From NCBI GenBank assembly GCA_937858715.1, contig CALLZY010000060.1, positions 1 to 32,776 of the forward strand: a stretch of DNA of 32,776 nucleotides. The letters are read 5' to 3'. Below are positions 1,916 to 31,534 of the stretch, one piece after another. Source of the DNA: an uncultured Chitinophagaceae bacterium (GTDB lineage: Bacteria > Bacteroidota > Bacteroidia > Chitinophagales > Chitinophagaceae). The first letter of the stretch is position 1. The number at the start of each line of letters is the position of its first letter. The position numbers were made by a program, and so were the translations under genes. The notes beneath the pieces were generated by a model. That model made no database searches. It worked only from the letters and a program-made list of their open reading frames with translations, and was not told where the DNA came from.

Positions 1916-2644
1916 ATGACTGAAAAAGAACTAAGATTGAAAACGGCCGAGATAGAAAAAATAAGTCACCTTGATTATTTTAATATTGGTATCTCTGTTG
2001 ACTGTGTGATTTTTGGTTACGATGAAAAGGATTTGAAAGTACTGCTGATAAAATCAGACCTTGAAGAATTTGAGGGATTATATTCTTTACTCGGCGATTT
2101 GGTAAAACCTGATGAAGATCTTGATACAGCCTCATACCGTATTTTAAAAGAAAGAACAGGTCTTGATGATGTTTACCTGGAACAGGTGCATGCTTTTGGC
2201 GGGCTTAATCGTCACCCTTCAGGAAGGGTAATTACTGTAGCCTATTATTCTTTGGTTGATATCAAGAATCACAGATTGCGGGTTGACAGCAACGAATTGC
2301 ATTGGCACTCGGTACAAACAATCAAAAATCTGGCTTTTGATCACAAACTTATCCTTGATACCTGCCTGGCAAGGTTGCAGCAACAGGTGATGGATTATCC
2401 TGTTATTTTCAACCTGCTGCCTGAGAAGTTTTCACTGCGGGAACTACAGGAATTATATGAAGCCATTTTGGGTGTAGAACTTGACAGGCGCAATTTCAGA
2501 AAGAAAATTGCCCTCAAAGACTGGCTGGTTGATACTAAGGAAATGGAGGAAAATGTACCCCACAGGCCCGGGAAATTACACCGGCTCAGGTCAGAGTACA
2601 AGAAAAAGAATGCTCAAAAAAGGTCAGCATTAATTTCTATGTAA
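1916..2644 (+). CDS. Nudix-fold sugar-responsive transcriptional regulator (AraR/NrtR type)
   Basis: This 242-residue protein has an N-terminal Nudix-like domain (about residues 20-155) and a C-terminal winged-helix domain (about 165-230, with FSLRELQELYEAILG and DRRNFRKKI). The Nudix box at residues 60-83 is degenerate: Glu67, Arg75, Glu79 and Gly82 are kept, but the expected REUxEE core reads RILKER, so two acidic metal ligands are lost. In NrtR-type regulators and the Bacteroides arabinose regulator AraR, such domains bind a small-molecule effector instead of hydrolysing a nucleotide. The gene sits directly before the SusC gene on the same strand, with a terminator and a palindrome between them, so it probably controls the galactan locus. 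The effector could be galactose, arabinose or a related sugar; this is inferred from position only. Confidence 0.85.
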   Translation: MTEKELRLKTAEIEKISHLDYFNIGISVDCVIFGYDEKDLKVLLIKSDLEEFEGLYSLLGDLVKPDEDLDTASYRILKERTGLDDVYLEQVHAFGGLNRHPSGRVITVAYYSLVDIKNHRLRVDSNELHWHSVQTIKNLAFDHKLILDTCLARLQQQVMDYPVIFNLLPEKFSLRELQELYEAILGVELDRRNFRKKIALKDWLVDTKEMEENVPHRPGKLHRLRSEYKKKNAQKRSALISM

Positions 2645-2809: not shown

Positions 2810-2843
2810 ACAAATCTGATTGCATAACATTTAATGATTGCTT

Positions 2844-5800
2844 ATGTTCTCCTCAAAAATTATGAAGGCCGCAGGTGTCTTTCTGCTGGCGTTTATTACA
2901 CAAATTTCATTTGCACAGAACAGGGTTGTAACAGGAAAGGTTACTGATTCCAAGGATGGCTCAGCCATGCAGGGAGTTACTGTTTCTGTAAAAGGTACGA
3001 AAACAGCTGTGACCACTGGTTCTGACGGTCTTTATAAGATTACAGTACCAGACGGGTCAACCACATTGGTTTTTTCATCTGTGGGGTTTACTCCGCAAGA
3101 ATTTGCCATCGATGGCAAAACCTCGGTGGATGTTGTATTGGCGGCTAATAACACACAACTTGGCGAGGTTGTGGTAATTGGTTATGGTTCTGCCAGGAAA
3201 AAAGATCTGACTGGATCTGTTACCCTGGTTACCTCAAAGGACTTTCAGAAAGGTAACATTACTACTCCCGAACAGCTGATTGCCGGCAAAGTTGCTGGTG
3301 TACAAATTACATCTAATGGTGGTGCACCTGGTTCCGGAAGTACAATCCGCATTCGTGGAGGTGCTTCTTTAAATGCCAGTAATAACCCGTTAATAGTAAT
3401 AGATGGTGTCCCTGTTGATAATGGCGGTATATCCGGTGCAGCTAATGCGCTGGCATTAATTAACCCAAATGATATTGAAACTTTCAACGTATTAAAAGAT
3501 GCTTCTGCTACCGCTATTTACGGTTCCAGGGCTTCCAACGGGGTAATTATAATTACAACAAAAAAGGGTAAAAGCGGAAAACCTAAATTCAGCTTTAGCA
3601 CTCAATTCTCATTGTCGACTTTGCCAAAACAGGCAGATGTGCTTTCTCCCGATGAATTCAGGGCATATGTAAATGCTCATGGAACGACTGCGCAAAAAGC
3701 CTTAATGGGCAATGCGAATACAAACTGGCAGGATGAAATATACAGCACTGCTTTTTCTACCGATAATAACATAAGTGTTGCAGGTGCATATAAGAAAGTG
3801 CCATACAGGGTTTCTTTAGGTTACATGAGTCAGGATGGTATTTTGAATACAGGTAACCTGAACAGAACATCATTATCGTTGAATCTCAGCCCTAAGTTTT
3901 TTAATGATTATTTAAAGGTTGATATTAACCTGAAAGGGTCTGTTAACAAATCAAGGTTTGCTGACGAAGGTTCAATTGGAAACGCAGTTCGGTTCGATCC
4001 TACCCAACCGGTTAAGACTTCTTCCGCCAGATTTGGCAGTTATTTTGAGTGGCTTGACCCTTCTTCAACCACAGGCTTGAGGAAACTGGCTCCAATTAAC
4101 CCCGTTGGCTTGTTAGAGCAAAGAACAGATAAGAGCACAGTGAAAAGGAGTATAGGTAATGTTCAGTTTGACTATAAACTGCATTTCTTTCCTGACCTCA
4201 GGGTTAATCTCAACCTGGGATATGATATAGCAAGAGGTGAAGGTACTGTATATATTCCTGACAGTGCTGCCTCATCTTACAAACGTTCTCCTGATGCCAA
4301 GCATGGTGGTGTTAACAACAGGTATTTGCAGGAAAAGTCAAATCTGCTAATGGAAACATACCTGAACTATGTAAAAGATGTGAAATCTATCAACAGCCGT
4401 TTTGATGTAATGGTAGGATACTCTTACCAGGATTTTTCTGCCACAAACTATAATGGCGAATTGGATCCTAATGGTATTTTAGTTGACAAAGATGGAAACA
4501 AATGGACTCCGTTCTCTGATTATACTACAGATGGTTTCCTTATCAGCAATTCTAAGTTCAGGTATGATAAACCACAAAACAGGCTGATATCTTACTTTGG
4601 AAGATTTAACTACTCTTATAAAGGAAAATACTTGTTGACTGGTACATTGCGCCGTGATGGTTCTTCCCGTTTCTCAGAAGATAACAGGTGGGGTTTGTTC
4701 CCTTCAGGAGCTTTTGCCTGGAGAATGAAAGAAGAAGGGCTGTTTAAGAATATAAATGTGTTAAGCGAATTGAAACTGAGAATTGGTTATGGGGAAACAG
4801 GCCAGCAGGATGGAATCGGAAACTATACTTATTTGCCTGTTTACAATGTGGCCAACAGTCAGGCACAATACCAGTTTGGCACTACTTTCTATGACCTTTA
4901 CAGGCCGGATGGGTATAATCCTAACCTGAAATGGGAGCAAACGGCTACCACAAACCTCGGCCTTGATTTCGGCTTTTTCAATGGCCGCATCACCGGTGCT
5001 GTTGACCTTTACCTGAAGAAAACCACAGATTTGTTAAGTGTAATCGATCAGCCTGCCGGCACCAATTTCTCCAATAAGATACTTGCCAATATTGGCAATA
5101 TGGAGAACCGTGGTATAGAAATAACTTTAAATACGCAGCCGGTTAAAACAAAAGAGCTGACATGGGATTTCGGTATCAATGCAACTTTCAATAAAAACGA
5201 AATCACTAAACTTACTTTCACAAACGATCCAACATTCCCCGGTAACCTGACAGGTGGCATCGCCGGTGGTGTTGGTAGCACTATTCAAATTCACTCTGTA
5301 AGCTATCCTAAGTCGTCATTCTATGTTTACAAGCAGGTTTATGATGCTTCTGGTAAACCAATAGAGAACCTTTTTGAAGACCTGAACCGTGATGGTCAGG
5401 TAAACATAAATGACCTGTATCGTTATAAGGCTCCGGATCCGGATGTATTCCTTGGAGCTTCCTCAAGTGTAAGCTGGAAAAAATGGACTGCCGGATTCCT
5501 GATGAGGGCTAACCTCGGAAATTATATGTACAATAACAGGTTCTCCAATACTGGCGTTAAGCGAAACATTATTGACCCGCTTGGTTTCTTAGCCAATGGT
5601 TCAAGAAATGTACTTGAAACTAACTTTACCGGTAATGGTGATAAATACCTGCTTTCTGATTATTACATTGAGAATGCATCGTTCCTGCGGATGGATAATA
5701 TCAATATCGGATATAACGCCGGAAGTATCGTAAGCAAAAACACGAATCTGAGGGTTGGTTTTAATGTACAAAATGTATTTACTGTTACGAAGTATAAAGG

Positions 5801-5888
5801 ACTTGATCCGGAAGTGCCTGGTGGTATAGACAACAATTTCTATCCAAGGCCAAGAAATTTTGTACTAAACCTGAATCTTGATTTTTAA
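2844..5888 (+). CDS. SusC/RagA-type TonB-dependent outer-membrane transporter
   Basis: About 1014 residues, the usual size for SusC proteins. It has an N-terminal signal peptide ending near SFAQ, a carboxypeptidase-D regulatory-like domain (about residues 27-105, with VTGKVTDSKDGSAMQGVTV), a plug domain beginning near VVVIGYGSARKKDLTGSV (about 110-235), and a beta-barrel ending in LNLDF, the aromatic-terminated last strand expected of outer-membrane proteins. I chose the ATG at 2844; a TTG at 2838 and an ATG at 2862 are in frame, and all keep the signal peptide. With the SusD protein downstream it should form the lidded pore that imports oligosaccharides using TonB energy. The flanking GH53 and GH2-GH53 enzymes suggest galactan-derived oligosaccharides. 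The substrate is inferred from context. Confidence 0.95.
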   Translation: MFSSKIMKAAGVFLLAFITQISFAQNRVVTGKVTDSKDGSAMQGVTVSVKGTKTAVTTGSDGLYKITVPDGSTTLVFSSVGFTPQEFAIDGKTSVDVVLAANNTQLGEVVVIGYGSARKKDLTGSVTLVTSKDFQKGNITTPEQLIAGKVAGVQITSNGGAPGSGSTIRIRGGASLNASNNPLIVIDGVPVDNGGISGAANALALINPNDIETFNVLKDASATAIYGSRASNGVIIITTKKGKSGKPKFSFSTQFSLSTLPKQADVLSPDEFRAYVNAHGTTAQKALMGNANTNWQDEIYSTAFSTDNNISVAGAYKKVPYRVSLGYMSQDGILNTGNLNRTSLSLNLSPKFFNDYLKVDINLKGSVNKSRFADEGSIGNAVRFDPTQPVKTSSARFGSYFEWLDPSSTTGLRKLAPINPVGLLEQRTDKSTVKRSIGNVQFDYKLHFFPDLRVNLNLGYDIARGEGTVYIPDSAASSYKRSPDAKHGGVNNRYLQEKSNLLMETYLNYVKDVKSINSRFDVMVGYSYQDFSATNYNGELDPNGILVDKDGNKWTPFSDYTTDGFLISNSKFRYDKPQNRLISYFGRFNYSYKGKYLLTGTLRRDGSSRFSEDNRWGLFPSGAFAWRMKEEGLFKNINVLSELKLRIGYGETGQQDGIGNYTYLPVYNVANSQAQYQFGTTFYDLYRPDGYNPNLKWEQTATTNLGLDFGFFNGRITGAVDLYLKKTTDLLSVIDQPAGTNFSNKILANIGNMENRGIEITLNTQPVKTKELTWDFGINATFNKNEITKLTFTNDPTFPGNLTGGIAGGVGSTIQIHSVSYPKSSFYVYKQVYDASGKPIENLFEDLNRDGQVNINDLYRYKAPDPDVFLGASSSVSWKKWTAGFLMRANLGNYMYNNRFSNTGVKRNIIDPLGFLANGSRNVLETNFTGNGDKYLLSDYYIENASFLRMDNINIGYNAGSIVSKNTNLRVGFNVQNVFTVTKYKGLDPEVPGGIDNNFYPRPRNFVLNLNLDF

Positions 5889-5913
5889 TAACGATTTGTA
5901 TAAAATTATGTAT

Positions 5914-7509
5914 ATGAAAAAAAGTATTCTAATTGCGAATAGTTTGCTTGCGGTGTTATTATTAGTAATAGCACAGTCTTGCAGCAAAAAACTGGATCTG
6001 ATGCCAACCAATGATGTAACATCAGAGACTGTTTATGCCACTCCGGCGGGATATAAGCAGGTACTTGGCAAAGTATATGGAAGTTTTGCGTTAACAGGTA
6101 ACCAGGGTCCTGATGGTAATGGTGATGTTCAGGGAATGGATGAAGGATTCTCTGATTTTTATCGTTTATTCTGGAAGGCACAGGAATTAAGCACCGATGA
6201 AGCTGTCATTAGCTGGGGTGATGTTGGTATTCAGGATTTTCACAACATGAACTGGACCTCAACCAACAGTTTTCTTACAGGTTTGTATTACCGCAGTTTG
6301 TACCAGATTACATTGTGTAACGACTTTATTAGGGAATCTTCGGACGAAAAACTTTCGGCTAGAGGAATTTCTGGAGCAGATGCAGATAACATCCGTCAGT
6401 ATGCAAGAGAAGCCCGGTTTCTCCGTGCTTTTCAATACTGGGTATTAATGGATTTATTCGGAAATCCTCCGTTCGCAACAGAAGCAACCGTTATAGGTGG
6501 TGCACCTCCTCCAAGAGCAACCCGGTCAGAAATCTTCAATTATGTTGAAACGGAACTTAAAGCCATTGAGCCTAATATGCCTGCCGCAAAGTCCAATGAA
6601 TATGGCCGTGCCGATAAAGGTGCAGTTTGGGCCTTATTAGCCCGCCTGTACCTGAATGCAGGTGTTTATACAACTACAGCAAGATGGGCAGATGCAATGA
6701 CATATTCCAAGAAAGTTATTGATGCCGGGTACACACTGATCACAGATTACACATGGCTGATGCGTGCCGATAATCACTTAAATACAAACGAGTTTATTTT
6801 CACGATTAATTATGATGGCCTGCATACACAAGGATATGGTGGAACAACCTTCCTGACTCATGCCTGCGTGGGTGGTTCTATGCCTGCTTCTTCTTTTGGT
6901 GTTGGTGGAGGTTGGAGCGGAACAAGGACAACAAAAAATTTGCCGCTTCTATTCCCTGATTTAACCGGAACCGCTGATAAAAGGTCACAGTTTTATACGT
7001 CTGGCCAAAGTCTCGAAATTACCGATGTTACAAGTTTTGTGAACGGCCTTGCAGTTACAAAGTATAAAAATTTAAAAAGGGATGGAAGCATTGGGCAAAG
7101 CCAGGATTTCTCTGATGTGGACATGCCATTGTTCCGTTTGGCTGAAATGTACCTGATTTATGCTGAAGCAGCATTACGCAGCAACGCTGATGTTACGGTA
7201 AAACAGACTGCACTGGGATATATAAACAATTTGCGTACAAGGGCATATGGAAATGCTTCAGGCAATATCACATTGGGACAAATGACAGAAGACTTTATAC
7301 TGGACGAAAGAGCCAGGGAACTGTACTGGGAAGGTTTCCGTCGTACTGACTTGATTCGCTACAATAAGTTCACAGAAGGTACTTATCTGTGGCCATGGAA
7401 AGGTGGTGTTAGTTCTGGAACAGGTGTTGCTTCATACAGGAAACTGTATCCAATTCCTTCCAGAGATATTAACTCCAACCTGAATCTTATTCAAAACCCA
7501 GGCTATTAA
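5914..7509 (+). CDS. SusD/RagB-type surface glycan-binding lipoprotein
   Basis: About 531 residues from the ATG at 5914, which gives a compact lipoprotein signal (MKKS..., lipobox IAQSC). The open frame extends upstream to overlap the SusC stop, but those codons look non-coding. The body shows the SusD layout: an N-terminal tetratricopeptide-like helical region (AREARFLRAFQYW, ALLARLYLNAG), and a conserved C-terminal SusD part (LAEMYLIYAEAALR, LDERARELYWEGFRRTDLIR) ending in the common LIQNPGY tail. It should sit on the outer leaflet as the lid of the SusC barrel and capture glycan before import. The gap after the SusC gene is only 25 bases, consistent with co-transcription. Confidence 0.95.
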   Translation: MKKSILIANSLLAVLLLVIAQSCSKKLDLMPTNDVTSETVYATPAGYKQVLGKVYGSFALTGNQGPDGNGDVQGMDEGFSDFYRLFWKAQELSTDEAVISWGDVGIQDFHNMNWTSTNSFLTGLYYRSLYQITLCNDFIRESSDEKLSARGISGADADNIRQYAREARFLRAFQYWVLMDLFGNPPFATEATVIGGAPPPRATRSEIFNYVETELKAIEPNMPAAKSNEYGRADKGAVWALLARLYLNAGVYTTTARWADAMTYSKKVIDAGYTLITDYTWLMRADNHLNTNEFIFTINYDGLHTQGYGGTTFLTHACVGGSMPASSFGVGGGWSGTRTTKNLPLLFPDLTGTADKRSQFYTSGQSLEITDVTSFVNGLAVTKYKNLKRDGSIGQSQDFSDVDMPLFRLAEMYLIYAEAALRSNADVTVKQTALGYINNLRTRAYGNASGNITLGQMTEDFILDERARELYWEGFRRTDLIRYNKFTEGTYLWPWKGGVSSGTGVASYRKLYPIPSRDINSNLNLIQNPGY

Positions 7510-9920: not shown

Positions 9921-10967
9921 ATGAAGTCTATCCCTTTTCGAGTAATTATCAGCAGTCTTTTGTTTTCATTTCTTTTTTTAGTCTTATCATCATCTTCCTG
10001 CAAAAAAACAAAGGAGCCTTATCCTGAACCTCCAATAGCAAGTCCGATTGCAAAAGGTGCAGACATAAGCTGGCTCACTGAAATGGAATCAACCGGAAGA
10101 AAATTCTACAATAGCTCAGGTACAGAACAGGACTGTATTCAGATTTTGAAGAACCTTGGTATGAATGCTGTCCGGCTCAGGGTTTGGGTTAATCCTGCTG
10201 GTGGATGGAACGGAGCGGCTGATGTGGTGGCAAAGGCTGTTCGTGCAAAAAACCTGGGAATGAAAATTATGATTGATTTTCATTACAGCGACTCATGGGC
10301 CGACCCAGGTCAGCAAACAAAGCCGGCAGCATGGGCTTCACAGGATTTTGCAACGCTAAAAAATTCTGTTTACAATCATACCTATGATGTACTGACATCT
10401 TTAAAGAACAACGGAGTAACGCCAGAATGGGTGCAGGTTGGTAATGAAACAAACGATGGCATGCTTTGGCCCGATGGTAAAGCGTCAACCAATATGGCAA
10501 ACTTTGCCGCATTGGTAAATAAAGGTTATGATGCTGTGAAAGCTGTTGATGCCAATATAAAAGTCATTGTTCATATTTCTAACGGACACGACAATAGTTT
10601 ATTCCGCTGGATTTTTGATGGACTGAAGAATAACGGTGGCAAGTGGGATGTTATTGGAATGTCGCTCTATCCTGAAGTATCAAACTGGTCAACAATGAAC
10701 TCTCAGTGCCTTTCAAATATTAATGACGTGATTGCCCGGTACGATAAACCGGTGATGATAACTGAAGTAGGCATGAGTTGGGACCAGGCCTCAGTTTGTC
10801 AGTCATTTATTGCTGACCTTATTAACAAGGTAAAATCAGTTGCTAACAATAAGGGTCTTGGGGTTTTTTACTGGGAGCCGCAGTCTTACAATAGCTGGAA
10901 AGGATATACAAAAGGTGCTTTTGATAACTCAGGAAAGCCGACTGTTGCGTTGAGTGCCTTTAATTAG
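9921..10967 (+). CDS. GH53 endo-beta-1,4-galactanase, lipoprotein
   Basis: A 348-residue protein with a lipoprotein signal (LSSSSC, cysteine 27) and a single GH53 (beta/alpha)8 barrel covering about residues 44-346. Family hallmarks are GADISWLTEME at the start, NAVRLRVWVNP, IDFHYSDSWADPG, the acid/base motif VQVGNETNDG (Glu176), the nucleophile motif MITEVGMSW (Glu282), and FYWEP near the end. GH53 enzymes cut internal beta-1,4-galactosyl bonds in type I arabinogalactan and pectic galactan. The lipid anchor suggests it works on the outer-membrane surface, releasing oligosaccharides for the SusC/SusD transporter just upstream. It is distinct from, but related to, the GH53 module fused in the next gene. 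Confidence 0.95.
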   Translation: MKSIPFRVIISSLLFSFLFLVLSSSSCKKTKEPYPEPPIASPIAKGADISWLTEMESTGRKFYNSSGTEQDCIQILKNLGMNAVRLRVWVNPAGGWNGAADVVAKAVRAKNLGMKIMIDFHYSDSWADPGQQTKPAAWASQDFATLKNSVYNHTYDVLTSLKNNGVTPEWVQVGNETNDGMLWPDGKASTNMANFAALVNKGYDAVKAVDANIKVIVHISNGHDNSLFRWIFDGLKNNGGKWDVIGMSLYPEVSNWSTMNSQCLSNINDVIARYDKPVMITEVGMSWDQASVCQSFIADLINKVKSVANNKGLGVFYWEPQSYNSWKGYTKGAFDNSGKPTVALSAFN

Positions 10968-11006
10968 TTCTGAAATTTTTTACTAAGCAATATTAATATC
11001 TGTTTT

Positions 11007-14000
11007 ATGAAACAGGCCGGATTAGTGGTTTTAGTAAGCCTGCTGGCAATCAGCAGCTATGCCCAAAGACAAAAAATCAATTTTGATAACGACTGGAAAT
11101 TTCAGTTTGGCCATGCTGCCAATGCTGAAAAGGATTTTAATTATTCTATTGCCACAATTTTCTCAAAATCGGGGGGTGCTGCAAACACAGCAATCGATCC
11201 AAAGTTTAACGACAGCAAATGGCGGACGCTAAATGTACCTCATGATTGGGCTGTAGAGTTGCCATTTGTTTACAAGGATATCCCGATAGCTATCGGGATT
11301 GACCTGATGGCTCATGGGTATAAGCCGGTTGGTGGTTTGTTTCCTGAAACGAGTGTTGGCTGGTATCGTAAACATTTTACAATTGCTGCTGCGGATTCCG
11401 GTCAGCGGTTTCAGCTTCAGTTCGATGGCATCTTCCGTGATGCAAATATCTGGCTGAATGGTTTTTACCTAGGCAATAACAAAAGCGGCTATGTAGGTGT
11501 TGCGTATGATGTAACCGACTATATCAATTTTGGGAAAAACAATGTATTGGTGGTACGGGCAGATGCTTCTCAATATGAAGGCTGGTTTTATGAAGGTGCA
11601 GGTATCTATCGCCATGTATGGCTGAATAAGTACAGCAATGTAAATATTGCAACTGATGGACTTTTTGCATGGTCTTCGGTAAAAGGGAATGTATCAACTA
11701 TAACAGTTGAAACAACTGTGAAAAACCAGGAACTTAACCCGGCTGGCTGCACTGTTTACACTTACATAGCTGACAGGAGCGGAAAGAAGTTGGTACAATC
11801 TAAAGAACAAGCTGCTTCACTATCGTTAAACGGAACAGCAACAGTTAAACAAAGCATGGCTATCGCAGGAGCGAGGTTATGGTCATTGGAAGATCCTTAT
11901 TTGTACAGGGTTGTTTCAATAGTAAAGCAAAATGGAAAAGTTGTTGACAGTATTAAGCAGCGGTTTGGCATTCGCACTATCGAAATAAAACCTAACGGTG
12001 TATTCATTAACGGAAAATATACTAAGCTCAAAGGAGTCAACAATCACCAGGATCATGCCGGTGTGGGCAGCGCAATGCCGGATTACCTGCAATACTATCG
12101 TATCAGTTTGTTGAAACGCATGGGGGTAAATTCGTACCGCACCAGCCACAATGCACCAACACCGGAGTTGCTCGATGCCTGTGACAGTCTCGGTATGCTG
12201 GTAATGGATGAACAACGTTTGTTAAACAGCAGTCCGGAGTATATTGACCAGTTTGAAAGATTAATAAAGAGGGATCGTAGCAGGGCATCAGTATTTATGT
12301 GGTCTATTGGAAACGAAGAAGGCTGGATACACACAAACAGTTTTGGAAAAAGAATTGCCCAAACATTAATCGCCAAGCAAAAAGAACTGGATCCAACAAG
12401 AACCTGCACTTATGCTGCCGACCTTGCTAATGTATATAAAGGAGTAAATGAAGTGATTCCTGTCAGGTCATTTAATTACCGGCATTTTGCTGTGGCTGAT
12501 TATCATCGTGACCATCCCAACCAGCCGATTATGGGTACAGAGATGGGCAGTACGGTTACCACCAGAGGTGTTTATGAAAAAGATACCATCCGTGGCTATG
12601 TCCCTGACCAGGACATAACGGCGCCATGGTGGGCCAGCAAGGCCGAAGACTGGTGGACATTGGCCGGCCCTAACGATTACTGGCTGGGCGGTTTTGTGTG
12701 GACAGGTTTCGATTACCGCGGCGAACCAACTCCCTATCAGTGGCCAAATATAAATTCGCATTTTGGAATCATGGATATGTGTGGCTTCCCCAAGAATATT
12801 TATTACTACTACAAAAGCTGGTGGACAGATAAGGATGTGCTTCACATATCTCCTCACTGGAATTTCAGGGATAAAGGACCGGGATGGAATAAACCAAAGG
12901 GAGATCCGGTCGATGTTTGGGTAAACAGCAATGCAGATAATGTAGAACTGTTTCTGAACGGAAAAAGTTTGGGTAAGAAAGAGATGCCCCGTAACAGCCA
13001 TCTGAAATGGACTGTTAATTACGAACCCGGAAAATTAGAAGCGGTCGCATATAAAAAAGGCAAACGTCTTTATAGGAAAGTTGAAACAACAGGAGTGCCT
13101 GCTGAGGTGGTGGTAACTCCATACAAAACCACAATACTTGCTGATGGAAAAGATGTGGCTGTGCTTAACATAACAGTGCTTGACAGAGATGGAAGAGAAG
13201 TGCCTGATGCCGATAACCTGATTAAGTTTGAAGTTGAAGGTCCTGGAAAAATTATTGGCGTTGGCAATGGCGACCCCAGCAGTCACGAACCGGATATTTG
13301 TGCCGATGGTGCCTGGCAAAGAACAGTGTTCAACGGTAAATGCCAGGTTATTGTTCAGGCAGGAACAAAGGCGGGCATGATTAAGTTTAATGCAAAAGCA
13401 ACCGGGTTGTGGTCTGGCGGAACGGATATACAAACCATTACTACAGAAAGTGTATCCAAAGTATCGGCTGATAACAATTACAAACTGACAGCCGAACAGG
13501 CAAAGCCAGCGGAAGTGGGTAAGATGCTTGGTGCAGATATATCTTTCTTGCCGGAATTAGAAGCAAGGGGCATGAAATTCACTGACAATGGTATAGAGAA
13601 AGATGCGGTACAAATATTGAAAGACCACGGCTTAAATTATGTAAGGCTCAGGATTTTTAATGACCCTGCAAGAGATAGTGGTTACTCACCCGGAAAAGGT
13701 TTTTGCGATTTGAGCAATACATTAAAAATGGCCAAAAGAGTAAAGGCTGCCGGAATGAAACTGTTGCTTGATTTTCATTACAGCGACTATTGGGCTGATC
13801 CGGGTAAACAATACAAGCCTGCTGCCTGGCGGAACTTGTCTTTTGATGAGCTGAAAAAAGCAGTTTATGATTTTACAAAAGATGTGATGCAGCAATTAAA
13901 AGCACAAGGAACCACACCTGATATGGTGCAGGTGGGCAACGAAATCAACCACGGCATTATCTGGCCGGAAGGCAACGTAAGTAATTTCGACGGGTTGGCT

Positions 14001-14426
14001 CAGTTGGTAAATGCCGGAACAGCAGCAGTAAAATCGGTTGACCCTTCTGTAATCATGATGCTGCATGTGGCGTTGGGTGGGCAGAATGATGAGTCGGTTT
14101 TCTTTATTGATAATATGGTTAGCCGTGGTGTTCATTTTGATGTGATAGGTGAATCGTACTATCCCAAATGGCATGGCACACTGGAAGACCTGGAAACTAA
14201 TCTGAATGATCTGGCAAAAAGATATAACAAAGATGTGATTGTGGTGGAATACTCAGCCCGCAAAGAAGATGTAAACAAGATAGCATTTGAAGTGGAAGGA
14301 GGCAAAGGAAAAGGCACCTGCATTTGGGAACCACTTAGTACCTGGGAGAAATTTTTTGATGAAAAAGGAAAGTCAAACGATTATCTGAAACTGTATGATG
14401 AAATAAGCAAAAAGTATATGAACTGA
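11007..14426 (+). CDS. GH2 beta-galactosidase fused to GH53 galactanase
   Basis: A 1139-residue bifunctional enzyme with a Sec signal peptide ending near SSYAQ. In order: GH2 sugar-binding domain (about 22-215), Ig-like domain (220-325), GH2 catalytic barrel (330-610) with acid/base Glu437 in WSIGNEEGW and nucleophile Glu512 in MGTEMGS, two further beta-sandwich domains (about 630-815), then a full GH53 barrel (about 838-1139) with acid/base Glu979 in VQVGNEINHG and nucleophile Glu1081 in VIVVEYSA. Both catalytic pairs are intact. GH2 enzymes of this kind remove terminal beta-galactose, while GH53 shortens the chain, so the fusion would convert imported galactan oligosaccharides to galactose, probably in the periplasm since no lipobox is visible. 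The gap from the GH53 gene is 39 bases. A 20-bp palindrome lies inside the coding frame at 11280-11299. Confidence 0.93.
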   Translation: MKQAGLVVLVSLLAISSYAQRQKINFDNDWKFQFGHAANAEKDFNYSIATIFSKSGGAANTAIDPKFNDSKWRTLNVPHDWAVELPFVYKDIPIAIGIDLMAHGYKPVGGLFPETSVGWYRKHFTIAAADSGQRFQLQFDGIFRDANIWLNGFYLGNNKSGYVGVAYDVTDYINFGKNNVLVVRADASQYEGWFYEGAGIYRHVWLNKYSNVNIATDGLFAWSSVKGNVSTITVETTVKNQELNPAGCTVYTYIADRSGKKLVQSKEQAASLSLNGTATVKQSMAIAGARLWSLEDPYLYRVVSIVKQNGKVVDSIKQRFGIRTIEIKPNGVFINGKYTKLKGVNNHQDHAGVGSAMPDYLQYYRISLLKRMGVNSYRTSHNAPTPELLDACDSLGMLVMDEQRLLNSSPEYIDQFERLIKRDRSRASVFMWSIGNEEGWIHTNSFGKRIAQTLIAKQKELDPTRTCTYAADLANVYKGVNEVIPVRSFNYRHFAVADYHRDHPNQPIMGTEMGSTVTTRGVYEKDTIRGYVPDQDITAPWWASKAEDWWTLAGPNDYWLGGFVWTGFDYRGEPTPYQWPNINSHFGIMDMCGFPKNIYYYYKSWWTDKDVLHISPHWNFRDKGPGWNKPKGDPVDVWVNSNADNVELFLNGKSLGKKEMPRNSHLKWTVNYEPGKLEAVAYKKGKRLYRKVETTGVPAEVVVTPYKTTILADGKDVAVLNITVLDRDGREVPDADNLIKFEVEGPGKIIGVGNGDPSSHEPDICADGAWQRTVFNGKCQVIVQAGTKAGMIKFNAKATGLWSGGTDIQTITTESVSKVSADNNYKLTAEQAKPAEVGKMLGADISFLPELEARGMKFTDNGIEKDAVQILKDHGLNYVRLRIFNDPARDSGYSPGKGFCDLSNTLKMAKRVKAAGMKLLLDFHYSDYWADPGKQYKPAAWRNLSFDELKKAVYDFTKDVMQQLKAQGTTPDMVQVGNEINHGIIWPEGNVSNFDGLAQLVNAGTAAVKSVDPSVIMMLHVALGGQNDESVFFIDNMVSRGVHFDVIGESYYPKWHGTLEDLETNLNDLAKRYNKDVIVVEYSARKEDVNKIAFEVEGGKGKGTCIWEPLSTWEKFFDEKGKSNDYLKLYDEISKKYMN
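11280..11299. repeat. 20-bp perfect palindrome inside the GH2 coding region
   Basis: ATCCCGATAGCTATCGGGAT reads the same on both strands. It encodes residues 92-98 (IPIAIGI) in the loop between PFVYKD and DLMAHGYKPVGG of the GH2 sugar-binding domain. No second copy of the full palindrome was noticed in the window. Confidence 0.9.
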
Positions 14427-14569: not shown

Positions 14570-15718
14570 ATGGGACAATACAAAATACCTGCACAGATAG
14601 AAAAATATGTAAATGCTGAAACTACTGTAGTGCGTTCGCCCGGCAGAATTAATCTGATTGGTGAACATACAGATTATAACAACGGATTTGTGTTGCCAGC
14701 TGCCATTGACAAAGCTGTTTATGTTGCTATTGAGAAAAATACAGGAGAATCCATTTTTCTTCACTCCATTGATTTTAATGAATCTGTTGAAACAACTGTG
14801 GCTGATATAAAACCAGCATTTGGTCATTGGTCAACTTATATACTCGGTGTAGCGGCTCAGTTTATAAAAAAAGGATTGACTGTTCCCGGTTTCAAACTTA
14901 CTGTTTATGGTGATGTGCCGCTGGGTGCCGGATTGTCTTCGTCTGCTGCTATTGAATGTGCCGTAGCTTTTGCACTGAATGAGTTGTTCGGTTTTGGTTT
15001 CGAAAGACGACAACTTTCATTGATTGCCCAACAGGCCGAGCATGAATATGCCGGAGTTAAGTGCGGTATCATGGATCAGTTTGCCAGTTTGTTTGGTAAG
15101 AAAAATAATGTAATAAGGCTCGACTGCCGTTCGCTGGAATACGAATATTTTCCGCTTGAGCTGAATGACTATACGGTTGTTCTTTTCGATACACAGGTTA
15201 AGCATTCATTGGCATCTTCTGAGTATAACGTAAGAAGAAGTCAGTGTGAAGCCGGAGTGGCAATAATTCAGCAGAAGTATCCCGCAGTAAAAAGTTTAAG
15301 GGACGCAACTATGCAAATGATTAACGAATGTATCAGCAAAGATGACCTTTCGTATAATCGTTGCAAATATGTGGTGGAAGAAATCACCCGTTTGCAAACA
15401 GCCTGTGAGGATTTGGTAAAGGGCGATGTTAAGGCTTTTGGAAAAGAAATGTTTGCCACACATGATGGTTTAAGCAGGGAATATGAAGTGAGTTGTAAAG
15501 AATTGGATTATCTTGTTGACTACGTAAGAGATAATCCGGCAGTAATTGGTGCGAGAATGATGGGCGGCGGATTTGGCGGCTGCACTATTAATATTATTCA
15601 TAAAGAGGCCGTGAATGAAATTGTGACGAGTCTGAGTGCAGCTTATTTGAAAGATATGGGCAAGGAACTGAAACATTATCTTGTAAATATCGAAGACGGA
15701 ACATCTGTTATTAAATAA
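14570..15718 (+). CDS. galK: Galactokinase
   Basis: A 382-residue GHMP-family kinase, the normal galactokinase length. The galactokinase signature PGRINLIGEHTDY is at residues 24-36, the phosphate-binding loop GAGLSSSAA at 119-127, the catalytic aspartate in KCGIMDQF (Asp170), and the third GHMP motif GARMMGGGFGGC near residue 330. It phosphorylates galactose to galactose-1-phosphate in the cytoplasm, the first committed step of the Leloir pathway. It is followed after 32 bases by a sodium:solute symporter, so uptake and phosphorylation are probably co-transcribed. It receives the galactose freed by GH53 and GH2-GH53. The next Leloir genes (galT, galE) are not in this window. Confidence 0.96.
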   Translation: MGQYKIPAQIEKYVNAETTVVRSPGRINLIGEHTDYNNGFVLPAAIDKAVYVAIEKNTGESIFLHSIDFNESVETTVADIKPAFGHWSTYILGVAAQFIKKGLTVPGFKLTVYGDVPLGAGLSSSAAIECAVAFALNELFGFGFERRQLSLIAQQAEHEYAGVKCGIMDQFASLFGKKNNVIRLDCRSLEYEYFPLELNDYTVVLFDTQVKHSLASSEYNVRRSQCEAGVAIIQQKYPAVKSLRDATMQMINECISKDDLSYNRCKYVVEEITRLQTACEDLVKGDVKAFGKEMFATHDGLSREYEVSCKELDYLVDYVRDNPAVIGARMMGGGFGGCTINIIHKEAVNEIVTSLSAAYLKDMGKELKHYLVNIEDGTSVIK

Positions 15719-15750: not shown

Positions 15751-17478
15751 ATGAAAGAAGCTCTGTTTCATCTGCAATGGATTGATAAAGCTATCATGGC
15801 AATCTATTTTCTCTTTGTTCTCGGGATTGGCTGGGTGCTTAAAAAATACATGAAGGATGCCAACGCTTTTCTGGAAGCAGGCAGGTCTATGCCGGCCTGG
15901 GTGGCAGGCTTAGCCTTTATTTCGACTAACCTTGGTGCTCTCGAAGTAATGGGTATGACTGGTTCTGGTGCCAAGTACGGGATGCTAACCACACATTTTT
16001 ACTGGATTGGTGCCATTCCCGCTATGGTCTTCCTCGCCATCTTTATGATGCCTTTCTATTATGGCTCAAAGGCCCGTTCGGTGCCTGAGTACCTGAAGCT
16101 TCGCTTTGATGAGAAAACAAGGGGACTAAATGCCATCCTGTTCGCAGTGATGACAGTATTGGCTTCTGGTATTTCAATGTATGCACTGGCACTCCTGATG
16201 GAAAAGGTACTTGGCTGGGACTTTAATGTCAGCTTATGGTTATCTGCTGCCATTGTATTGGCTTATACTTATCTCGGCGGTTTGTCATCTGCTATTTATA
16301 ATGAAGTGTTACAGTTCTTCATTATTGTAATAGGACTGATGCCAATTGTATTCTTAGGTCTTCATGAGGTAGGGGGCTGGAGTGGTCTAAAAGAAAGTCT
16401 TGCGCCGATTGTGGCAGAAAAAGGATTTGCCGGAGATACATTTACCACAACCTGGAAATACACCGGTACTGCCGCAGGTAACCCAATGGGTGTGGAATGG
16501 TATGGAATATTGTTTGGTTTGGGCTTTGTATTGTCTTTTGGTTACTGGTGTACTAACTTTCTTATTGTGCAAAGGGCAATGGCTGCAGAATCAACAACTG
16601 CTGCCCGCAATACTCCATTAATTGGTGCTATACCGAAGATGCTTATTCCTTTCCTTATTATCGTTCCGGGTATTGTGGCCCTGGTGCTGATGAATAAAAC
16701 CGGCTCCGGGTTTACCATCATGGAAAACGGTAAAGCGAATTATGACCTTACTATCATCAAGTTGCTGGAATATTATTTGCCAACCGGTGTGCTTGGTTTG
16801 GGTATTACTGCGCTGCTGGCTTCGTTCATGTCGGGTATGGCTGGTAATGTTTCTGCATTCAACACTGTCTGGACATATGATATTTATCAGAGCTACATCA
16901 GGCCGGCTACCAACGATAAACAGGCCGATGCCAAACATTATCTGAAAGTGGGAAGGCTGGCAACTGTATTCGGTGTTTTAGTAAGTATCGCTGCAGCATA
17001 CCTTGCTGGTTTGTTTGGAAACATCATGGACTTTTTACAAACTATTTTCTCCATGATTAATGCACCGTTGTTTGCCGTTATCTTCCTTGGTATGTTCTGG
17101 AAGCGTACAACAGGGCATGGCGCTTTCATTGGTTTGTTAGGTGGTTTCTTCGTGGCGTTATTACACCATGGGCTTACTGTTCCTGCGGGTGCCACAACGC
17201 TGGTAAAAGGCGGCTGGATAAGTGTTGCACATACGTATCCTGTTGAAATGGCACAAAACTTCTGGACAGCTATTTTTGCCTGCGCTGCAGCCGCAATCAT
17301 TACTGTAGTAATATCGTTAGGAACTAAACAACAAAAAACGGATGATGAACTGCGTGGACTTGTTTATTCGTTAACGCCAAAAATTCAGGAGGACCATGTG
17401 GTCTGGTACAAACGCACCAACACACTGGCCATATTTGTGCTGGTAATGATGGTTATATTGTCAATCTTATTCTGGTAA
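15751..17478 (+). CDS. Sodium:solute symporter (SSS family), probable galactose uptake
   Basis: A 575-residue polytopic inner-membrane protein with about 13-14 hydrophobic helices. SSS-family features are an opening with FLFVLGIGW, DANAFLEAGRSMPAW (helix 2 entry), FISTNLGALEVMGMTG in the substrate/sodium region, RSVPEYLKLRFD, and the long mid-section ending with ASFMSGMAGNVSAFNTVWTYDIYQ, typical of SGLT-like transporters. It couples sodium entry to solute uptake. Its place directly after galK makes galactose (or a galactoside) the likely substrate, but this is inferred from context. The following 65-residue membrane protein is 19 bases downstream and probably made with it. Confidence 0.92.
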   Translation: MKEALFHLQWIDKAIMAIYFLFVLGIGWVLKKYMKDANAFLEAGRSMPAWVAGLAFISTNLGALEVMGMTGSGAKYGMLTTHFYWIGAIPAMVFLAIFMMPFYYGSKARSVPEYLKLRFDEKTRGLNAILFAVMTVLASGISMYALALLMEKVLGWDFNVSLWLSAAIVLAYTYLGGLSSAIYNEVLQFFIIVIGLMPIVFLGLHEVGGWSGLKESLAPIVAEKGFAGDTFTTTWKYTGTAAGNPMGVEWYGILFGLGFVLSFGYWCTNFLIVQRAMAAESTTAARNTPLIGAIPKMLIPFLIIVPGIVALVLMNKTGSGFTIMENGKANYDLTIIKLLEYYLPTGVLGLGITALLASFMSGMAGNVSAFNTVWTYDIYQSYIRPATNDKQADAKHYLKVGRLATVFGVLVSIAAAYLAGLFGNIMDFLQTIFSMINAPLFAVIFLGMFWKRTTGHGAFIGLLGGFFVALLHHGLTVPAGATTLVKGGWISVAHTYPVEMAQNFWTAIFACAAAAIITVVISLGTKQQKTDDELRGLVYSLTPKIQEDHVVWYKRTNTLAIFVLVMMVILSILFW

Positions 17479-29316: not shown

Positions 29317-29333
29317 TGTGTACTTTTTACACA
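29317..29333 (+). promoter_or_regulatory. Inverted repeat upstream of the GH97 gene
   Basis: TGTGTA (29317-29322) and TACACA (29328-29333) are separated by CTTTT. The words are the same as in the palindrome before the SusC gene (TACACA-T-TGTGTA), but in reversed order. The repeat lies 33 bases before the preferred GH97 start and after the LOG stop, so it is a candidate operator. Confidence 0.4.
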
Positions 29334-29365
29334 AAAGTTATAACTTCACACAAAATTATTGTGCC

Positions 29366-31534
29366 ATGTTACCTAAAAGATTGCTCCTGTCAGTAGTTTC
29401 AATGTTTTTTGTTTTCTTAGCTAAAGCCGATATGACTTATACAACATTGTCTCCCAACGGAAATATTAAATTGGAAGTATTGCACCGCCAAAATGGCGAT
29501 GTAGTGTACCGTGTGTTTTACAAAGAAAAAGCAGTGATAACCCCGTCCGGCCTTGGCATAAAATTTAAAGTACCGGAAGTAACGCTTACAAAATTCAAAT
29601 TGCTTGCTGTCGATTCTTCGGTATTTGACGAAATATGGAACCCGGTTTGGGGCGAAACAAAAACTATTCGTAATAATTATAAACAGCTGGTGCTGAAACT
29701 TGCCGATAAAGGAACTTCAGGAATTGAAATGGCGATAACATTTCGTGTGTTTGATGACGGAGTTGGTTTCCGGTATTCTTTTCCGCAGCAAGCGAAACTG
29801 AATCATTTTATTGTAGCTGATGAGCTTACACAATTTGGCATGAGCGGCGACCACAAGGCATTCTGGATTCCCGGTGATTATGATACAAACGAGTACGGAT
29901 ACTATACAAGTAACCTGAGTAAAGTGGATGCCTCCGGCGGTGGATTTGCCCAGGAAATACATGCTAAAACTTCGTTTGATAATAATGCAGTGCAAACCCC
30001 GCTGATGATGAAATCGGCTGATGGCCTTTATATCAATCTGCATGAAGCAGCATTGGTTAATTATCCAGCCATGAACCTGGTGCTGAATAAGGAAACCATG
30101 ACTTTCAGTTCTCATCTTGTTCCTGATGCAGTAGGTAATAAAGCTTATTTGCAAGCGCCGGCACAAACACCCTGGAGAACCATTATCGTAAGTGATAAGG
30201 CTCCTGAAATCCTGATGTCGAAAACAATACTAAACCTTAATGAGCCTTCAAAAATTGCTGACCCGTCATGGATTAAGCCTGTTAAATACGTAGGTGTATG
30301 GTGGGAAATGCATGTGGGCAAAAGCAGTTGGGATTACAGCGGCGGACAAGTGGGTAGTCAGCAGGCGAGTAAAGTGCCGCATGGAGCTAATACGGACAAC
30401 GTAAAAAGGTATATTGATTTTGCCGCACAGCATGGATTTAGCGGTGTATTGGTAGAAGGATGGAACACCGGCTGGGAAGACTGGTTCGGCCAGTGGAAAG
30501 AAGATGTGTTTGATTTTGTAACTCCTTATCCTGATTTTGATGTGAAGGGACTGCAAAAATATGCAGCACAAAAAGGTGTGAAACTGATAATGCACCACGA
30601 AACATCAGCATCAGTTACCAACTATGAAAGGTGGATGGATACGGCTTACCGTTTTATGAAACAGTACGGCTATGATGCAGTTAAGACAGGTTATGTAGGA
30701 AGAATCATTCCCCGTGGCGAGCACCACGATGGCCAATGGATGATTAAGCATTATGAAAGAGTAGCGGCGAAAACAGCCAGTTATAAAATTATGCTCAATG
30801 CACATGAGCCTGTTCGCCCAACAGGTCTGCACCGCACTTACCCCAACTGGCTGGCCTGCGAAGCAGCAAGAGGAAATGAATTTAATGCCTGGAGTCATGG
30901 TAATGAGCCCGATCATGAAACCATACTTCCGTTTACACGGATTATGGGCGGGCCGATGGATTATACGCCAGGTATTTTCAAAATAAAAATGAGTTATTAC
31001 AATCCCGAAAAGAAAGAGCAGGTGCATACAACACTTACCAAACAAATGGCACTGTATATTACCATGTACAGTCCGTTGCAGATGGCGGCTGACCTGCCGG
31101 AGAATTATGAGGCAAAAATGGAAGCCTTCCAGTTTATTAAAGATGTGGCAGTTGATTGGGATGAAACCAAAGTACTGGATGCAGAGCCTGGTGATTATAT
31201 TCTTACAGCAAGAAAAGGAAAAGGGTCTGATAACTGGTTCATCGGTGCTATTACAGATGAAAATGCAAGGAGCCTTTCTGCTGAATTATCTTTCCTTGAT
31301 GATGGCAAAGTGTACCAGGCGATTATTTACAGGGATGCAGATAATGCCGACTGGAAGAGCAATCCTGAAGCATATACGATAGAAAAGAAATTAGTCAATA
31401 GAAACTCTGTATTGGGTTTAAAACTGGCACCCGGCGGTGGTGCGGCTATAAGCATTATGCCGCTTACTGCCGAACAGCAATTGCAGATGAAGAAAGAAAT
31501 AAAGGCACTTCCTAAAACTAAAAAGAAAAAATAA
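29366..31534 (+). CDS. GH97 alpha-glucosidase (SusB-like, inverting type)
   Basis: About 722 residues from the ATG at 29366, which gives a signal peptide (MLPKRLLLSVVSMFFVFLAKA); a GTG at 29318 would put 16 polar residues in front and is unlikely. The N-terminal beta-sandwich (about 25-275) precedes the (beta/alpha)8 barrel. Glu412 in MHHETSA, Glu481 in NAHEPVRPTG and Glu505 in ARGNEF have the same spacing (69 and 24 residues) as the base pair and acid of Bacteroides SusB. The position used as nucleophile by retaining alpha-galactosidases of GH97 reads VKTGYVG, with no aspartate. It is therefore predicted to be an inverting alpha-glucosidase, probably periplasmic. Its stop overlaps the SemiSWEET start by one base (TAATG). 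Confidence 0.92.
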   Translation: MLPKRLLLSVVSMFFVFLAKADMTYTTLSPNGNIKLEVLHRQNGDVVYRVFYKEKAVITPSGLGIKFKVPEVTLTKFKLLAVDSSVFDEIWNPVWGETKTIRNNYKQLVLKLADKGTSGIEMAITFRVFDDGVGFRYSFPQQAKLNHFIVADELTQFGMSGDHKAFWIPGDYDTNEYGYYTSNLSKVDASGGGFAQEIHAKTSFDNNAVQTPLMMKSADGLYINLHEAALVNYPAMNLVLNKETMTFSSHLVPDAVGNKAYLQAPAQTPWRTIIVSDKAPEILMSKTILNLNEPSKIADPSWIKPVKYVGVWWEMHVGKSSWDYSGGQVGSQQASKVPHGANTDNVKRYIDFAAQHGFSGVLVEGWNTGWEDWFGQWKEDVFDFVTPYPDFDVKGLQKYAAQKGVKLIMHHETSASVTNYERWMDTAYRFMKQYGYDAVKTGYVGRIIPRGEHHDGQWMIKHYERVAAKTASYKIMLNAHEPVRPTGLHRTYPNWLACEAARGNEFNAWSHGNEPDHETILPFTRIMGGPMDYTPGIFKIKMSYYNPEKKEQVHTTLTKQMALYITMYSPLQMAADLPENYEAKMEAFQFIKDVAVDWDETKVLDAEPGDYILTARKGKGSDNWFIGAITDENARSLSAELSFLDDGKVYQAIIYRDADNADWKSNPEAYTIEKKLVNRNSVLGLKLAPGGGAAISIMPLTAEQQLQMKKEIKALPKTKKKK

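What the first reader, a model, noticed from the sequence alone, without database searches (positions are those of the whole stretch)
11007..14426. GH2-GH53 fusion that could take galactan oligosaccharides to galactose in one enzyme
Both domains keep complete catalytic pairs (Glu437/Glu512 in GH2, Glu979/Glu1081 in GH53), and a separate GH53 lipoprotein lies just upstream. GH53 (endo) and GH2 (exo, beta-galactosidase) normally occur as separate proteins. A fused protein would hand fragments from the endo site to the exo site, while the free lipoprotein acts on intact polymer outside. The two GH53 copies would then be specialised for different places.
Basis: partly seen in the sequence, partly recalled or inferred. 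Interest (0 to 1): 0.7.

Follow-up and report, generated by a model that had tools for sequence, protein, structure and literature searches.

The report
Two-in-one galactan-digesting enzyme, conserved fusion
A bacterium carries one protein that joins an enzyme predicted to cut galactan chains to one predicted to release single galactose units; the fusion is real, shared by many related bacteria and seems to have arisen at least twice, but no test of its activity was found in the papers searched.

Summary
Window 11007-14426 is one open frame of 1139 aa: signal peptide, GalA-type GH2 beta-galactosidase, 35-aa linker, GH53 endo-beta-1,4-galactanase, with all four catalytic glutamates in place. 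It is not a sequencing error: 94 distinct ORFs in fetched loci carry both domains in this order, and 46 of 244 sampled genomes of its family hold it in one frame, a lower bound. It sits in a galactan PUL (SusC/D/E, free GH53, galactokinase, SSF symporter).

The free GH53 is a probable lipoprotein related to the B. thetaiotaomicron enzyme. The fused GH53 belongs to another clade, follows a plain signal peptide and has a very short 7th loop, which suggests trimming of short imported oligosaccharides. Hand-over between sites was not tested.

New here: a second GH2-GH53 fusion of independent origin (G406; one origin rejected, p-AU 1.6e-5, post hoc), a GH35-GH53 fusion (G314), and apparent loss of the GH53 half in Flavobacterium-type relatives. 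Repeated fusion hints at selection for exo/endo coupling. Verdict: a conserved, apparently uncharacterised variant of a known kind, the multicatalytic CAZyme.

The parts
1916..2644 (+). Nudix + NrtR/AraR-type winged-helix regulator, possibly the local sugar-responsive regulator
   Evidence: Pfam NrtR_WHD 84.8 bits, NUDIX, AraR_C; role inferred from position
2838..5888 (+). SusC-like TonB-dependent transporter
   Evidence: Pfam Plug, CarbopepD_reg_2, beta-barrel
5878..7509 (+). SusD-like surface glycan-binding protein
   Evidence: Pfam SusD_RagB 113.3 bits
7529..8395 (+). SusE-like protein 1
   Evidence: Pfam SusE 69.4 bits
8420..9838 (+). SusE-like protein 2
   Evidence: Pfam SusE 80.5 bits
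9921..10967 (+). Free GH53 endo-beta-1,4-galactanase, like the B. thetaiotaomicron enzyme, probable lipoprotein (Cys27 by eye; residues -3 to -1 are SSS, so not a strict lipobox)
   Evidence: Pfam GH53 350.8 bits; best PDB match 6gp5, E 8.3e-92; tree
11007..14426 (+). GH2-GH53 fusion, 1139 aa, N-terminal signal peptide without lipobox (by eye)
11085..13415 (+). GH2 (GalA-type beta-galactosidase) half, residues 27-803; catalytic Glu437 (12315-12317) and Glu512 (12540-12542)
13416..13520 (+). Interdomain linker, residues 804-838 (35 aa in 45 of 76 aligned rows, 28-65 overall)
13521..14423 (+). GH53 half, residues 839-1139; catalytic Glu979 (13941-13943) and Glu1081 (14247-14249)
14570..15718 (+). 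Galactokinase GalK
   Evidence: TIGR00131 298.3 bits against cut-off 226.65; Pfam
15751..17478 (+). Sodium:solute symporter (SSF), probable galactose uptake across the inner membrane
   Evidence: Pfam SSF 184.7 bits; substrate inferred from position

Best explanation
The protein is a bifunctional periplasmic enzyme of a beta-1,4-galactan (pectic galactan) utilisation locus. The free GH53 lipoprotein cuts polymer at the cell surface (inferred). SusC/D brings galacto-oligosaccharides into the periplasm (inferred from the B. thetaiotaomicron model). There the GH53 half of the fusion cuts them further, and the GH2 half removes galactose from the non-reducing ends. An SSF symporter and galactokinase take up and phosphorylate the galactose. 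The fused GH53 is a separate clade with the shortest 7th beta/alpha-loop among the rows compared and a short tail after beta8, so it probably lacks the distal -3/-4 subsites and works on short chains, yielding galactose and galactobiose for the partner. Shown: architecture, catalytic residues in place, conservation, two GH53 clades, loop lengths, gene context, independent re-invention. Inferred: localisation, substrate, product size, any benefit of linkage.
For: Domain matches. Catalytic Glu kept in every row with a letter at the site: 93, 93, 93 and 91 of 94 distinct ORFs, the rest being contig-truncated rows or one X. Fused GH53s form one clade (100/99) apart from the clade that holds the free copy. 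Free copy matches B. thetaiotaomicron 6gp5 at 8.3e-92; fused GH53 matches IaGal 7osk best, 3.4e-69. 25 residues lie between nucleophile and beta8 Trp in 31 of 31 fused rows, against 35 in 5 of 5 chosen rows of the free type and 54-58 in 6 of 6 other chosen solo GH53s. PMC8447715 (passages) ties an extended loop with -3/-4 subsites to failure to cut galactotriose, and says fungal enzymes and BtGal degrade galactan down to galactobiose. No lipobox-like motif in 65 of 67 full-length fusions (simple pattern). PUL with galK and SSF; GH53 BT4668 acts before import and GH2 BT4667 in the periplasm of B. thetaiotaomicron (PMC8002723, passages). Independent second fusion in the same operon order.
Against: No activity data. 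GH2 specificity cannot be read from sequence: nearest solved relatives (7cwd, 5t98/5t99) are only 31-33% identical. In 33 of 54 long loci no SusD resembling the window's was found in the fetched stretch, and for L053, L070, L086 and L092 the one or two neighbours scanned were not carbohydrate genes, so the enzyme is not tied to this PUL. Trp1113 in the 8th loop is kept in 89 of 91 covering rows and could supply a distal sugar platform. Flavobacterium-type relatives appear to have lost the GH53 half, so fusion is not essential. One genome (G637) has the halves in two overlapping frames.
Confidence: 0.7

Rival explanations
1. The fusion acts outside the cell or at the surface and turns polymer into galactose there; the GH53 half is a general polymer-cutting galactanase.
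For: Some other GH53 proteins of the phylum look exported: L236 passes and L233 just misses the Pfam cut-off for a type IX sorting tail. One fusion (L090) starts with a possible lipobox (WSCNQQ) seen by eye.
Against: The window protein shows no sorting tail in Pfam or NCBIfam and no lipobox by eye; 65 of 67 relatives lack a lipobox-like motif (the pattern flagged L065 and L110 and missed L090, so the count is approximate).
Confidence: 0.12
2. One half is catalytically silent or has drifted to another substrate, so the protein is in effect a single enzyme with a binding domain.
For: GH2 is a family of several specificities, and the model has low confidence in stretches of the GH2 barrel such as 515-542 and 570-585.
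Against: Catalytic Glu in both halves kept in every row with a letter at the site; mean column conservation alike, 0.77 and 0.79; GalA cut-off passed.
Confidence: 0.12
3. The fusion is close to neutral: two neighbouring genes joined and stayed so, with no gain from linkage beyond equal amounts of both enzymes. This is compatible with the best explanation except for any benefit of linkage.
For: GH53 and GH2 occur as neighbouring separate genes in G036, G293 and Flavobacterium loci; apparent losses of the GH53 half; reported absence of synergy in some multicatalytic CAZymes (PMC8417218, passages).
Against: Independent second GH2-GH53 fusion and a GH35-GH53 fusion; long conservation of the first fusion.
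Confidence: 0.3
4. Sequencing or assembly artefact joining two genes.
For: None found.
Against: Same architecture in 75 distinct other loci and 46 of 244 family genomes, several loci being from named isolates.
Confidence: 0.005

Closest known systems
B. thetaiotaomicron galactan PUL BT4667-BT4673 (GH2 BT4667 + GH53 BT4668)
   Same: SusC/D, a surface glycan-binding protein, a GH53 that cuts polymer and a GH2 beta-1,4-galactosidase in the periplasm (PMC8002723 and PMC5238430, passages); the window's free GH53 is closest to the B. thetaiotaomicron GH53 structure 6gp5 (that 6gp5 is BT4668 is recalled)
   Different: GH2 and GH53 are separate proteins there; the window adds a second GH53 of another clade fused to GH2; no HTCS among the window proteins scanned, a Nudix/NrtR-type regulator instead
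IaGal (7osk) and BlGal (1r8l), GH53
   Same: Nearest solved relatives of the fused GH53 domain, catalytic Glu aligned; Trp of subsite -2 kept (W929, 94 of 94; its match to IaGal Trp115 counted by hand from the alignment)
   Different: Fused clade has only 25 residues between nucleophile and beta8 Trp, so no room for the long 7th loop and its calcium bridge to loop 8 described for these two (PMC8447715, passages)
GH2 beta-galactosidases: GalA family (NF041462), BuGH2A (5t98), B. circulans enzyme (7cwd)
   Same: Profile match over the cut-off, same fold, catalytic pair aligned with 5t98
   Different: Specificity of the fused GH2 untested; identity to these structures only 31-33%
Multicatalytic CAZymes (CE15-GH8, CE6-CE1, ChiA exo/endo chitinase, CelA)
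   Same: Two catalytic domains in one protein; ChiA and CelA also pair exo and endo (PMC8417218, passages)
   Different: Other substrates and families

Membership tests
GH53 (Pfam PF07745) | Profile score over the curated cut-off | tested here: met
   323.1 bits, cut-off 24
GH53 (Pfam PF07745) | Acid/base Glu on beta4 and nucleophile Glu on beta7 | tested here: met
   E979 and E1081, kept in all rows with a letter there
[quoted passage not shown]
   needs assay
GH2, GalA type (NF041462) | Score over curated cut-off | tested here: met
   1035.9 bits, cut-off 900
GH2, GalA type (NF041462) | Catalytic Glu pair | tested here: met
   E437, E512 aligned with Glu of 5t98
GH2, GalA type (NF041462) | Beta-galactosidase activity | not testable with these tools
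   needs assay
Galactan PUL of the BT4667-4673 kind | SusC/SusD pair with GH53 and GH2 galactosidase genes | tested here: met
   cell locations inferred from sequence only
Galactan PUL of the BT4667-4673 kind | Hybrid two-component regulator (HTCS) in the locus | tested here: not met
   none among the 20 window proteins scanned with Pfam (10, 10), which include the large gene-like ORFs; a Nudix/NrtR_WHD regulator instead. The rest of the genome was not searched for one.
Multicatalytic CAZyme | Two complete catalytic domains in one polypeptide | tested here: met
Multicatalytic CAZyme | Intramolecular synergy (seen in some members, not in others) | not testable with these tools
   needs full length versus mixed halves

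The most novel reading that the evidence does not exclude
Bacteroidota have repeatedly fused an exo-beta-galactosidase (GH2 twice, GH35 once) to a C-terminal GH53, and the fused GH53 of the largest group is a distinct clade reshaped (minimal loops 7 and 8) from a polymer-cutting galactanase into a periplasmic oligosaccharide cutter that works as one unit with its exo partner.
Probability: 0.45. Interest if true: 0.55.

Novelty: new variant of a known kind. Interest (0 to 1): 0.38.

Why it matters
If both halves work, the fusion would convert imported galactan fragments to galactose in one protein, and its independent re-invention gives a natural experiment on whether linking exo and endo enzymes pays. 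The fused GH53 clade has no close solved relative (best match 7osk) and could have its own product range, of use for making or removing galacto-oligosaccharides. The carriers include many Chitinophagaceae, often found on plant matter (recalled).

Tried and rejected
Sequencing error: rejected by conservation. Single origin of all GH2-GH53 fusions: rejected (p-AU 1.61e-5, 17 rows against 30); the group was named after the quick tree had been seen, and L229 has a long end branch (1.08), so the p-value flatters. The independent GH2 placement points the same way.

Papers: one search found 0 papers with the strings 'GH2-GH53', 'GH53-GH2' or 'GH2 GH53', and one search found 0 for its terms. Searches (19 papers; 14; 6; 20 of 25 listed; 20 of 89 listed; 12 of 13 listed; 14) listed none whose title or abstract start described such an enzyme. 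Two that looked closest were opened (passages): PMC4730625 and PMC5457731 have GH2 and GH53 as separate genes, and the 'GH53' genes there are annotated as lac repressor or GGDEF/inner-membrane proteins. PMC11739564 (passages) concerns GH35; PMC11784079 (passages) describes a Segatella galactan PUL with a GH53 gene and a GH2 gene; PMC3243724 (passages) gave only growth and induction data. CAZy, PULDB and most subscription journals could not be searched. The second structure job, Rfam, RNA-model, viral, phage and plasmid searches were not used.

Weak points: tree sets are cluster representatives (107 GH53 rows; 47 chosen by hand; 56 GH2 rows, quick and without the mixture model). Loci from the genome search and from the named collection can be one species twice; distinct counts removed only identical C-terminal ends. 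Lipobox counts rest on a simple pattern; no signal-peptide predictor was available. In one search at most 3 candidates per genome were scored (G473 has a 1121-aa GH53 frame that one search does not list), so 46 of 244 is a lower bound.
Full report
1. The observation. The frame 11007-14426 encodes 1139 aa. Pfam finds a complete GH2 chain of domains (residues 28-802) and GH53 (841-1084, 323 bits). NCBIfam names the first half GalA, 1036 bits against a cut-off of 900. Glu437, Glu512, Glu979 and Glu1081 are present and align with Glu residues of solved relatives.

2. Surroundings. From left to right: a Nudix/NrtR-type regulator, SusC, SusD, two SusE-like proteins, a free GH53, the fusion, galactokinase and an SSF symporter. 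This is a galactan utilisation locus of the kind known from B. thetaiotaomicron (PMC8002723 and PMC5238430, passages), but with a different regulator type and an extra GH53.

3. How common it is. Of 113 loci held, 80 carry both domains in one ORF at 50% identity or more; after removing 2 of the window's own and 3 duplicates, 75 are distinct, 67 of them full length. With later loci the number is 94 distinct, counting the independent G406 fusion; in all 111 ORFs before removing repeats the GH2 part is N-terminal. In the window's own genus, 8 of 35 genomes searched (own included) hold the whole fusion and 4 more hold pieces cut by contig ends. In a sample of 244 genomes of the family, 46 hold the fusion in one frame, two of them cut at the N-terminus (lower bound), while 122 hold any GH53. 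In a sample of 395 genomes of the phylum, 91 hold a GH53; the fusion spans one frame in 4 (G000, G446, G090, G347), all in this family, plus the diverged G406 (E up to 1e-150, at most 2 candidates scored per genome). Named carriers include Lacibacter, Flavisolibacter, Pinibacter, Puia, Longitalea and Flectobacillus isolates and some Bacteroidales MAGs. So the fusion is widespread in its family, not a rarity.

4. Both halves look alive. Over 94 distinct ORFs, the four catalytic positions are Glu in 93, 93, 93 and 91 rows; the others are gaps in contig-truncated rows (L013, L014, L083, L099) or an X (L081). Mean conservation is 0.77 for GH2 and 0.79 for GH53, against 0.54 for the linker.

5. Two different GH53s. 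The free GH53 is closest to the B. thetaiotaomicron structure 6gp5 (8.3e-92). The fused one is closest to IaGal (7osk, 3.4e-69; 6gp5 5e-46). In the 107-row tree and in the careful 47-row tree, fused GH53s other than G406's form one clade (100; 100/99) that also holds two solo rows: L238 from G036, a free 340-aa GH53 beside a separate GH2, and L234 from G155, a 505-aa frame with a remnant GH2 C-terminal domain. The number of residues between nucleophile and the beta8 Trp is 25 in 31 of 31 fused rows, 35 in 5 of 5 chosen rows of the free type, 35 in G406's fusion, 45 in the GH35-GH53 protein and 54-58 in 6 of 6 other chosen solo rows; the tail after that Trp is 28-41 residues in 30 of 31 fused rows and 334 in one (L100). 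In 6gp5 I count 28 from the alignment printed. According to PMC8447715 (passages), an extended loop gives BlGal its -3 and -4 subsites and keeps it from cutting galactotriose, BtGal has a much shorter 7th loop, and fungal enzymes and BtGal go down to galactobiose. By analogy the fused GH53 should accept short chains; this is inference, and Trp1113, kept in 89 of 91 covering rows, is a caution.

6. Location. The fusion starts with a plain signal peptide; 65 of 67 full-length relatives show no lipobox-like motif (the pattern missed a possible one in L090). Of 100 fused ORFs with at least 1.2 kb of upstream sequence, 44 have a solo GH53 directly upstream; 33 of these 44 match a loose lipobox pattern, and the other 11 show a Cys after a hydrophobic run by eye (some loci are repeats). 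The window's own free GH53 has Cys27 preceded by SSS, so lipidation is likely but not certain.

7. Repeated invention. G406 holds a GH2-GH53 protein of 1157 aa, again behind a free GH53 gene. Its GH53 is 47% identical to the window's free GH53 and 36% to the fused one and groups with its own neighbour and that of G293 (96/87), as a local duplication would; its GH2 groups with the unfused GH2 of G293 (100), which lies beside a separate GH53 gene. Holding all fusions together costs 93 log units, p-AU 1.61e-5 (post hoc). G314 holds a GH35-GH53 protein of 1225 aa with the same order, exo enzyme first; its place in the tree is unsure (end branch 1.6-1.9). In the GH2 tree, unfused GH2s L096 (standing also for L098, L102, L108 and L113), L107, L105 (standing for L106 and L109) and L095 lie inside the fused clade, which reads as loss of the GH53 half; the forks concerned have support of 84-96. 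Loci L098, L102, L107, L108 and L113 (5 of 5) have two separate GH53 genes just upstream; L096 has one; L095, L105, L106 and L109 have none in the fetched stretch.

8. Limits on the reading. In 54 loci of 10 kb or more with a fusion ORF over 3 kb, 21 have a SusD and 20 a free GH53 resembling the window's. L042 sits among GH28, GH43 and GH92 genes and a SusC; L044 is followed by a FecR-like and a distant SusC-like protein; L050 lies beside galactokinase and SSF; L046 beside SSF; for L053, L070, L086 and L092 the one or two neighbours scanned were not carbohydrate genes. So the enzyme is found in several settings and sometimes may stand alone. G637 carries the two halves in two frames whose matches overlap by 16 bases, a natural split or a sequence error.

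9. Verdict. A real, conserved, probably bifunctional galactan enzyme, apparently not described in the papers searched, of a known kind (multicatalytic CAZymes; PMC8417218, passages, reports synergy for some and none for others).

Noticed in passing
L229:902-4372 (-), genome G406: Independent GH2-GH53 fusion behind a free GH53 gene, same operon order as the window but from other GH2 and GH53 clades.
   Followed up: yes
L231:906-4580 (+), genome G314: GH35-GH53 fusion of 1225 aa, a third exo/endo galactan architecture.
   Followed up: partly
L098, L102, L107, L108, L113: Flavobacterium loci with unfused GalA-type GH2 preceded by two separate GH53 genes of different clades; the GH2 tree (L096 and L107 as representatives) suggests loss of the fused GH53.
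   Followed up: partly
window 1916-2644: Nudix domain plus NrtR/AraR-type winged helix upstream of SusC; possible galactose-responsive regulator where the B. thetaiotaomicron locus has an HTCS.
   Followed up: no
G000:C5:25944-28169 (L030): Second GalA-like GH2 in the same genome, 48% identical, 961-aa frame with a longer C-terminal part; similar 940-990-aa frames occur in other genomes of the class and phylum.
   Followed up: no
L235:1424-5974 (+), genome G071: GH2 with about 560 extra N-terminal residues and a C-terminal F5/8C domain, 1517 aa.
   Followed up: no
G637:C14:31486-34841: The two halves match in two frames (865 and 377 aa) that overlap by 16 bases: natural split or sequence error.
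   Followed up: no
window 29318-31534: GH97 glycosidase downstream, apparently unrelated to the galactan locus.
   Followed up: no
window 10965-11007: The free GH53 and the fusion are in the same reading frame, 39 bases apart, separated by two stop codons (TAG, then TGA).
   Followed up: no
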